A stretch of 64,000 nucleotides of DNA, taken from assembly GCA_024403035.1 (NCBI GenBank), contig JAKSSP010000006.1, forward strand, positions 1 through 64,000, given 5' to 3'. Both the position numbers and the translations under genes were made by a program. This stretch comes from Mogibacterium sp. (lineage in GTDB: Bacteria; Bacillota; Clostridia; Peptostreptococcales; Anaerovoracaceae). The notes below the pieces were generated by a model that was not told where the DNA came from, did not search any database, and was given only the letters and a program-made list of their open reading frames with translations. This document shows positions 20,854-26,213 of this stretch, one piece after another (positions within the stretch are counted from its first letter, which is position 1; each line of letters begins with the position of its first letter).

Positions 20854-20951
20854 TGGCGGGAGTACGTGGGAATCGAACCCACCCGGGAGGCTCCTAACCC
20901 CCTGCAAACGGTTTTGAAGACCGCGAGGCACACCAGCACCTATCTACCCCC
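20854..20951 (-). tRNA. selC: tRNA-Sec (anticodon TCA), selC
   Basis: A 98-nt tRNA can be folded with an eight-position acceptor (GGGGGTAG against GTACTCCC, one mismatch at the inner end), a six-pair D-stem (AGGTGC/GTGCCT) with a four-base loop, anticodon stem GCGGT/ACCGT around CTTCAAA (anticodon TCA), a long variable arm and T-stem GTGGG/CCCAC, ending in encoded GCCA. The long acceptor, six-pair D-stem and long variable arm are diagnostic for tRNA-Sec. It lies 24 bp upstream of selA. Confidence 0.95.
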
Positions 20952-25294: not shown

Positions 25295-25618
25295 TCACTC
25301 CAGCGATTCGCTTATGTAATACGAGTTAACGCGGCCTTCGGTTATGAGGACTGACTCCTGGTGGAAGAACGCGCAGAGATCCTTTGCGATCTCCTCCGCA
25401 ACAGATTTCTCAACATCTATCAGTGTAAGAACCAGAGTAGTTTCCCGGGTATACGTACCGTCTTCATGGATATATCCGCCCTCTTCCACATCGAAAGAGA
25501 ACGCCGTTTTATAGGCAAAGCAGACGGTCTTCAATATGCCGATAAACGTTTCCGTCTCAAAAAGCTGTTTTCTCTCGACCGAATCATTCAGTCCAACGTA
25601 TACCTTCGTTTCGACCAT
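25295..25618 (-). CDS. Hypothetical protein, 107 residues
   Basis: I choose the start MVETKVYVGLND because GGGAG lies nine bases upstream of that ATG; upstream in-frame ATGs (to 25657) lack a ribosome site. The protein is an alpha/beta-looking small soluble protein with the segments TRETTLVLTLIDVE and FFHQESVLITEGRV, suggesting a ferredoxin-like fold that senses or binds a partner, but I do not recognise the family. It is the first gene of the larE-udk-larC2-punA-HD-cysE operon. Confidence 0.7.
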   Translation of the reverse strand: MVETKVYVGLNDSVERKQLFETETFIGILKTVCFAYKTAFSFDVEEGGYIHEDGTYTRETTLVLTLIDVEKSVAEEIAKDLCAFFHQESVLITEGRVNSYYISESLE

Positions 25619-25662
25619 TTCCGCTGTCTCCCGTCTCATCTTTGCTATTATCATCAAATATT

Positions 25663-25671: not shown

Positions 25672-25792
25672 TACATAAGTTGTTTTGTGATGCTGTCACA
25701 GATTATCGTTCTTTGCCATATATTGTAAACCTAAACAAAAAATCAGGTTTCATTTTGTATTTTTTAAATACATTTTTATTGCCGGAAAAGCA

Positions 25793-25821
25793 TTGCGGTC
25801 GTGTTTTTAAATCAGTACAAT
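25793..25821 (+). promoter_or_regulatory. Sigma-A promoter of the structured RNA
   Basis: TTGCGG (25793-25798), exactly 17 bp, then TACAAT (25816-25821). The predicted start near 25828 is just ahead of the first strong stem of the RNA. Confidence 0.6.
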
Positions 25822-25952
25822 CAAGACAAGAAGAAGGGACGTAATAGCCGGACGGAAAAGAAATCAGGGAAAGACTTTAAAAATCGGAAGTCAGCGAAGT
25901 GATCCGGCATACTACAAAAGCGCGGGACGCGCAGAAACGGAGGAGCAGACCA

Positions 25953-25988
25953 ATGGGTGCAATTTACATGGAGGCTGTTCCGGAATAA
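25953..25988 (+). CDS. Possible 11-codon ORF inside the structured RNA
   Basis: ATG at 25953 is preceded by GGAGGA with an ideal eight-base gap and encodes MGAIYMEAVPE before TAA. The ribosome site lies in the 5' arm of the stem at 25938-25982, so folding would hide it. It may be chance in a purine-rich RNA, or a leader peptide or dual-function RNA. Confidence 0.25.
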   Translation: MGAIYMEAVPE

Positions 25989-26164
25989 ATCCTCTGCAAG
26001 GCATGCCTACTTAGTGGCAACCGGGAGTGAAAGAATCCGGACACAGAAGATCTAATCAGCAGATGCGATCACGGGGCAGCCTCAGAAAACAAAAAACACG
26101 ACTTAAAAAGAATAGCCGTATTGCAGACATGCACGGCAAACAACTGAATATCAGGAAGTAACGA

Positions 26165-26193
26165 GGGACGGGCAAGCCCGTCCCCTTATTGTT
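26165..26193 (+). terminator. Rho-independent terminator of the structured RNA
   Basis: GGGACGGG-CAAG-CCCGTCCC is followed by CTTATTGTTGTT. The U-tract is on the plus strand, which fixes the direction of the RNA; on the minus strand, after asd, the stem is followed by TCGTTACTT, a poor tract. Confidence 0.85.
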
Positions 26194-26213
26194 GTTATGG
26201 TTTTTTCTCCGCC

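What the first reader, a model, noticed from the sequence alone, without database searches (positions are those of the whole stretch)
25793..26193. Unassigned structured RNA gene of about 365 nt with its own promoter and terminator
The sequence shows a promoter (TTGCGG-17-TACAAT), at least six independent stems, several of them GC-rich, and a strong terminator, in a gap with no protein-length frame. It matches none of tmRNA, RNase P, SRP or 6S by inspection. Large structured RNAs of unknown role exist in Clostridia (for example the raiA motif), so it may be a known class or a new one. This is the best candidate in the window for something undescribed.
Basis: partly seen in the sequence, partly recalled or inferred. 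Interest (0 to 1): 0.72.

Follow-up and report, generated by a model that had tools for sequence, protein, structure and literature searches.

The report
Structured RNA gene with tiny ORF
A roughly 365-nucleotide RNA gene of uncultured gut bacteria matches no family in Rfam, has a central helix kept by compensating mutations, and carries a 10-11-codon reading frame whose end sits inside that helix.

Summary
The finding holds. Window 25827-26195 (+) looks like a free-standing RNA gene with its own promoter and terminator. Nothing in Rfam reaches its cut-off, and permissive searches gave only chance-level rows. Homologues occur in 35 of 47 genomes of the window's genus; one remote relative was found in another genus of the family. 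No match in the viral, phage and plasmid collections searched.

A 10-bp helix enclosing a branched core covaries: 41 double-sided changes against 11.3 +/- 2.6 in shuffles.

All 37 homologues carry an SD-like site and an AUG opening a 10-11-codon ORF ending in UAA or UAG; 400 neutral simulations kept it in at most 19 of 36. Its last codons form the 5' arm of the covarying helix. The peptide itself shows no coding signature.

Best reading: a trans-acting regulatory RNA whose central helix is opened by translation of its built-in mini-ORF. tmRNA and CsrA sponge are excluded as far as tested; an orphan attenuator is disfavoured. Transcription, translation and targets are untested.

The parts
25755..25772 (.). 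Palindrome TTGTATTTTTTAAATACA, possible operator or activator site, centred about 64 bp upstream of the presumed start
   Evidence: only match with up to 2 mismatches in the window (0.09 expected); of 20 exact pattern matches in 47 genus genomes 17 lie at this RNA's promoter, in 16 of the 35 genomes with the RNA; not seen in L074, L076-L078
25793..25821 (+). Sigma-A-type promoter TTGCGG-17-TACAAT
   Evidence: similar elements at the same place in relatives; no promoter picked by the script for L094-L097 and L099
25827..26195 (+). RNA gene, presumed transcript of about 365 nt (start inferred from the -10 box)
25847..25908 (+). 5' hairpin GCCGGAC...GTGATCCGGC; absent from short homologues such as L018, L020, L043
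25920..25932 (+). GC hairpin GCGCGGGACGCGC
   Evidence: one pair is G-C in 13 and C-G in 1 of 14
25939..25952 (+). Shine-Dalgarno-like GGAGG and the conserved GACC before the AUG
   Evidence: GACC in 36 of 36; GGAGG in 34 of 37, GAGG in the other 3
25953..25988 (+). Mini-ORF ATG...TAA, 11 codons (MGAIYMEAVPE)
   Evidence: ATG and TAA/TAG in 37 of 37, 31 with 11 and 6 with 10 codons; null simulation; no amino-acid-level signature
25973..25982 (+). 5' arm of central helix PA (GGCTGTTCCG), inside the mini-ORF
25994..26062 (+). Inner helices: PB 25994-25997 with 26059-26062; PC 26005-26007 with 26016-26018; pseudoknot 26021-26024 with 26037-26040 crossing 26027-26029 with 26042-26044
   Evidence: the pseudoknot is seen in the main clade only and pairs in 70.5% of cells
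26072..26081 (+). 3' arm of central helix PA (CGGGGCAGCC)
26115..26137 (+). 3' hairpin GCCGT...ACGGC
   Evidence: one pair is U-A in 9 and C-G in 5 of 14
26140..26151 (+). Motif ACAACTGAATAT
   Evidence: a loose form (ACAA..AATA) recurs downstream of the core in 33 of 37
26165..26195 (+). Intrinsic terminator hairpin and U-rich tail

Best explanation
A free-standing, trans-acting structured RNA, about 365 nt here, shorter in some relatives and up to roughly 670 nt in others, expressed from its own, possibly regulated promoter. A ribosome loads at GGAGG-GACC-AUGGG, translates 10-11 codons and stops just past the 5' arm of helix PA. While it does so PA cannot form, so the RNA would switch between a translated, open state and an untranslated, folded state, and act in trans in one of them. 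The translation event, more than the peptide, seems to be what is kept. Shown from sequence: conserved gene, promoter, terminator, covarying PA, conserved start and stop of the mini-ORF, differing neighbours. Inferred: transcription, translation, switching, trans action, targets.
For: Present in 35 of 47 genus genomes. PA covaries: own arms pair at a mean of -21.3 kcal/mol over 35 sequences; arms of different classes at -6.7 to -12.9 in five of six mixed combinations; over the whole structure 41 cells with double changes against 11.3 by shuffle, 90.4% of cells paired against 27-45% when slid. ATG, GACC and the TA of the stop are invariant in 36 of 36 while the codon before and the bases after the stop vary by 1.0-1.7 bits. 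A neutral simulation kept start and stop in 3.1 +/- 4.1 of 36, at most 19, in 400 runs. In the six 10-codon homologues the helix starts one base earlier relative to the AUG and the stop is moved so that it still falls in frame. Substitutions in codons 2-6 are even over codon positions (0.34/0.30/0.36) and the three frames score alike, so the peptide is not visibly selected. Downstream neighbours differ: convergent Asd in 19 and a convergent homoserine-dehydrogenase-like gene in 5 of 37, co-directional PNP in 5, not identified in 8. Two genomes, G008 and G070, have two copies, one of the latter cut by a contig end.
Against: No expression or ribosome data. The all-pairs covariation test reached significance for no single pair (best E about 1.25, though that pair is in PA). 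Among the 14 closest sequences the covariation term is nearly nil (-0.07 kcal/mol). One PA class (L094-L097) pairs no better with its own 3' arms (-15.7) than with those of the main class (-17.0), and L083 pairs poorly (-7.3). The alignment was fitted to the model. The AUG is predicted to be no more accessible than average (unpaired 0.41 against 0.49). In the remote relative G106 three of five module copies lack the AUG, so the module may have a role apart from translation. The null ignores constraints from RNA structure. Whether the 10-codon frame arose once or more often was not tested. Nothing identifies a target.
Confidence: 0.4

Rival explanations
1. Ordinary dual-function small RNA: the short peptide is a real product and the structured part base-pairs with mRNAs, as in SgrS/SgrT, SR1/SR1P or RNAIII/delta-haemolysin (names partly recalled).
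For: AUG and stop kept in 37 of 37; N-terminal M-G-x-F with charged residues 5-6 is common; peptide-coding sRNAs are known (listings).
Against: No coding signature: codon-position divergence flat in codons 2-6, frame 0 no better than the others by BLOSUM (2.11, 2.08, 1.92); the C-terminal types go with the PA classes; 10-11 residues is very short.
Confidence: 0.25
2. Purely structural or protein-binding RNA: GGAGG-GACC-AUGGG is a binding motif for a protein or for the 30S subunit (decoy), and the ORF is incidental.
For: GACC is invariant though an SD does not need it; the motif is repeated five times in G106, three copies without AUG.
Against: Does not explain the invariant TAA/TAG in a variable context nor the re-framed stops.
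Confidence: 0.2
3. Orphan ribosome-mediated attenuator: leader peptide plus terminator that once preceded a gene.
For: Leader-like ORF and terminator; a leader hairpin with the same arms and a mini-ORF MRLFR precedes an ATPase-like gene in three relatives; PNP follows on the same strand in 5 of 37 loci.
Against: In 24 of 37 loci the next identified gene is convergent, in 8 it was not identified.
Confidence: 0.07
4. Sponge for the regulator CsrA.
For: Slight excess of GGA (440 against 398, z 3.0).
Against: CsrA (PF02599) found in 0 of 47 genus genomes, while 3 of 14 control genomes ring; ANGGA not enriched (z -1.6).
Confidence: 0.01
5. Chance conservation or artefact, for example remnants of coding sequence.
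For: The model also hits a protein gene in two genomes that I read as phosphoglycerate kinase.
Against: Double compensatory changes, conserved promoter and terminator.
Confidence: 0.02

Closest known systems
Dual-function small RNAs (RNAIII/hld, SgrS/SgrT, SR1/SR1P, VcdRP); from recall and the listings
   Same: Free-standing structured RNA with a short ORF and SD
   Different: Those peptides are longer (29 residues for VcdRP in the listed abstract, the others recalled) and made as proteins; here 10-11 codons without amino-acid signature and the ORF end lies in the main helix; no Rfam match
Large structured RNAs such as raiA, OLE, ROOL, GOLLD, HEARO
   Same: Long structured RNA of unclear role; ROOL was named for the rumen (abstract listed)
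   Different: No Rfam family reaches its cut-off here; that these families are among the 4227 models is recalled, not checked by name
tmRNA (RF00023)
   Same: About 365 nt, short internal ORF ending in a stop, pseudoknot
   Different: No tmRNA call here; has SD and AUG; a tmRNA over the cut-off lies elsewhere in the same genome (G000:C56:693-1046)
Ribosome-mediated attenuator leaders
   Same: Mini-ORF overlapping one arm of a helix, terminator downstream
   Different: A co-directional gene was identified directly downstream in only 5 of 37 loci

Membership tests
Any of the 4227 Rfam 15 families | covariance-model score at or above gathering | tested here: not met
   20 homologous loci searched, rows found there were far below gathering
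tmRNA | tmRNA model or ARAGORN call; tag ORF without SD and AUG (recalled) | tested here: not met
   no call in the window; a tmRNA over the cut-off elsewhere in the own genome and in 33 of 47 genus genomes
Csr/Rsm sponge RNA | CsrA present; repeated ANGGA | tested here: not met
   position of the motifs in loops not tested
Dual-function sRNA | free-standing transcript with terminator | tested here: inconclusive
   promoter and terminator by sequence and conservation; transcript not observed
Dual-function sRNA | conserved SD, start and stop | tested here: met
Dual-function sRNA | peptide under purifying selection | tested here: not met
   the ORF is very short, so power is low
Dual-function sRNA | translation and base-pairing with mRNA targets | not testable with these tools
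   no RNA-seq, Ribo-seq or interaction data
Ribosome-mediated attenuator | co-directional gene directly downstream | tested here: not met
   next identified gene convergent in 24, co-directional PNP in 5, not identified in 8 of 37; convergent in the window itself

The most novel reading that the evidence does not exclude
A new kind of ribosome-gated regulatory RNA: what selection keeps is a translation event of fixed length ending inside the core helix, not the peptide, so the RNA reads out translation capacity and acts in trans; the SD-GACC-AUGGG module can be multiplied (five copies in one relative).
Probability: 0.3. Interest if true: 0.8.

Novelty: new variant of a known kind. Interest (0 to 1): 0.6.

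Why it matters
It is a well-supported RNA family without an Rfam match. It joins two usually separate things: a covarying RNA architecture, and a mini-ORF whose start and stop are strictly kept while its amino acids drift. If translation gates the fold, it is a trans-acting RNA that senses ribosome activity, which can be tested by changing start, stop and frame separately. It also warns that RNAs filed as non-coding can hide ORFs below common length cut-offs.

Tried and rejected
Known Rfam families, tmRNA and CsrA sponge: rejected. Hits of the covariance model outside the genus at E about 1e-4 were inspected: four lie in protein genes by my reading (L089, L090, L092, L093) and were dropped; only G106 (L091/L115) was kept, for its five repeated modules. 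Short extra hits in G006, G014 and G027 (L085-L087) were read as a leader hairpin, not as copies. Pattern hits L032, L040, L052 and L100, L101, L106, L114 lie in or before protein genes by my reading and were dropped, as was the viral pattern hit L121, a repetitive, apparently coding stretch. The first alignment A1 mixed strands and was discarded; A4 was replaced by A5. All-pairs covariation with a tree-based null gave no significant pair. The palindrome did not reveal a regulon: three of 20 matches lie elsewhere, without a common theme that I could see. Seven genomes without the RNA were asked for Asd, six had it; their loci show no module, and one loose motif match in L146 lies in an ABC-transporter-like coding frame. 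Pairing of the 5' end with the terminator tail looked possible; its covariation was not tested. A degenerate second module in the 5' part of L095-L097 was seen by eye only; the motif matrix did not score it. Row handling: 37 sequences from 35 genomes; L099 (a close copy of L094) left out; L088 (cut by a contig end) also left out; three stray rows and one duplicate left out; one search took 20 of the 28 loci then held; the 20 distinct 11-codon ORFs come from 35 sequences.

Full report
What is there. Window 25827-26195 lies between two minus-strand neighbours: a 120-aa ORF followed by a LarE-like gene, divergent from it (my name; Pfam gives only QueC and tRNA_Me_trans type matches), and a convergent aspartate-semialdehyde dehydrogenase gene, asd. 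It has a promoter TTGCGG-17-TACAAT and ends in a strong terminator hairpin. The strand folds better than 100 of 100 shuffles.

Not a known RNA. Rfam 15 gives only tRNAs (including tRNA-Sec) in the window at gathering thresholds. On the region alone, at E up to 10, five unrelated rows far below gathering appear. In 20 homologous loci, at E up to 1, five rows far below gathering appear; one (STnc560, E 0.21, 26.2 bits against 55) overlaps the 3' end of the RNA in L005, and I take it as chance. The genome has a tmRNA over the cut-off elsewhere.

Distribution. BLAST finds it in 24 of 60 genomes: 23 of the own genus, own included, and one weak 39-base hit in another family, probably chance. A covariance model of the core (alignment A5, model R1) finds 35 of 47 genomes of the genus and 26 of 393 in the order, 21 of them in the genus. 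Of the other five only G106, in another genus of the family, survived inspection. A pattern scan of named genomes gave 25 stretches; 22 remain after dropping three in protein genes. Their titles read Mogibacterium sp. or (uncultured) Clostridiales bacterium, several from sheep or goat gut sections. Of seven genomes of the genus without a hit, six have Asd, and no RNA module was found within about 1.5 kb of it. No match to an exact core pattern in viral contigs, nor to the window's RNA by blastn in phages or plasmids; distant forms could be missed.

Anatomy. From 5' to 3': in part of the homologues a palindrome TTGTATTnnTTnAATACA upstream of the promoter (exact in 16 of the 35 genomes; 17 of 20 matches in the genus lie here); promoter; GACAACAAGA-type start; optional hairpins; GGAGG or GAGG, then GACC-A-AUGGG; a mini-ORF; helix PA enclosing PB, PC and, in the main clade, a pseudoknot; a 3' hairpin; a motif like ACAACUGAAUAU (loose form in 33 of 37); terminator. 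In the shortest forms the AUG lies 47-48 nt from the start of the -10 box, in the longest about 430 nt.

Structure evidence. On 36 sequences and 25 pairs, 90.4% of cells pair (27-45% when slid) and 41 cells have changes on both sides (shuffles 11.3 +/- 2.6); PA has six pairs with double changes; the pseudoknot pairs in only 70.5% of cells. The alignment was fitted to the model, except that the pseudoknot was not in the model. Without an alignment, own PA arms of 35 sequences pair at -21.3 kcal/mol on average. Class means, own against mixed: main class -21.5 against -8.8 and -10.8; VIL class -15.7 against -12.9 and -6.7; VDP class -15.7 against -12.0 and -17.0, so this last class gives no support; L083 pairs poorly at -7.3. 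An all-pairs test with a tree-based null was not significant for any single pair (best E 1.25, in PA), and the RNAalifold covariation term on the 14 closest sequences is nearly nil.

Mini-ORF. All 27 loci and all 37 sequences have it (L075 reads MVAF, the other 36 begin MG): 31 with 11 codons, 6 with 10; stops TAA 21 and TAG 16, never TGA. The codon before the stop and the bases after it vary, the TA does not (36 sequences). In the 10-codon class PA starts one base earlier relative to the AUG, yet a stop still falls in frame; whether this arose once or more often was not tested. A simulation that redistributes the observed substitutions over the tree kept start and stop in at most 19 of 36 in 400 runs, mean 3.1; it ignores structural constraint. 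Against a functional peptide: flat codon-position divergence in codons 2-6 (0.34/0.30/0.36; 0.33/0.45/0.21 in codons 7-11, which overlap PA) and hardly better BLOSUM score in frame 0 (2.11) than in frames 1 and 2 (2.08, 1.92), on 20 distinct 11-codon ORFs. Predicted accessibility: SD 0.54, AUG 0.41, whole region 0.49 unpaired, so the fold does not specially expose the start.

The relative in G106. A separate locus with promoter-like and terminator-like ends, by my reading, holds five copies of a (G/A)GAGGnnRGACCAA module within about 310 nt; copies 1 and 5 have AUG and ORFs of 6 and 10 codons, copies 2-4 lack the AUG. Motif scores are 24.6 and 17.2 for copies 1 and 5, against a best value of 16.3 in 720 mononucleotide shuffles of the genus's own sequences; copies 2-4 score 10.4, 7.1 and 3.2. 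One of two genomes of that genus has it, and a paired-module pattern finds it in 1 of 391 genomes of the class. So the module may have a role that does not need translation.

Mechanism. The gene downstream differs: convergent Asd in 19 and a convergent homoserine-dehydrogenase-like gene in 5 of 37, co-directional PNP in 5, not identified in 8 (only nine window proteins were compared). Two genomes have two copies, one of them cut by a contig end. It therefore most likely acts in trans. Because the ORF's last codons are the 5' arm of PA, a translating ribosome must open PA. I favour a translation-gated regulatory RNA (0.4), ahead of a dual-function sRNA with a working peptide (0.25) and a structural or ribosome-decoy RNA (0.2). 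Expression, translation, switching and targets are inferred.

Literature. Five searches were made and no paper was opened: I saw the listings and abstract starts. A search for Anaerovoracaceae with noncoding RNA listed two papers, neither about such an RNA by title; that family name is my guess and comes from no call. Statements on RNAIII, SgrS and SR1 peptides are recalled.

Coordinates, counts of SD, start and stop, and terminators were recounted. Mended: the Rfam rows, the neighbour counts, the SD count, the palindrome count and the class energies of PA.

Noticed in passing
L075, L079-L082, L094-L097, mostly the long 5' part: Motif RAAGTAC is repeated in long homologues: 26 copies over 35 RNAs against 3.2 expected, 23 of them in these nine; role unknown.
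   Followed up: partly
L085:471-531, L086:569-629, L087:538-598: In three relatives a leader hairpin with the same arms as helix PA (GGCTGTTCCG / GGGACAGCC) followed by a T run, with a mini-ORF MRLFR, precedes an ATPase-like gene (my reading): a possible attenuator or target.
   Followed up: partly
L115:2129-2434 (G106): Five tandem copies of the SD-GACC module in one RNA of another genus; short hairpins near them were seen by eye only.
   Followed up: partly
window 20858-20951 (-): Selenocysteine tRNA gene; the mini-ORFs never use TGA as stop.
   Followed up: no
window 25295-25657 (-): 120-aa ORF without Pfam match next to the LarE-like gene; apart from the window's own locus, found beside the RNA in only two of the 37 loci, L068 and L070.
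   Followed up: no
L039/L098 (G008) and L083 (G029): A divergent class of the RNA (the second copy in G008) lies, by my reading of the DNA in G008, beside a desulfoferrodoxin-like gene.
   Followed up: no
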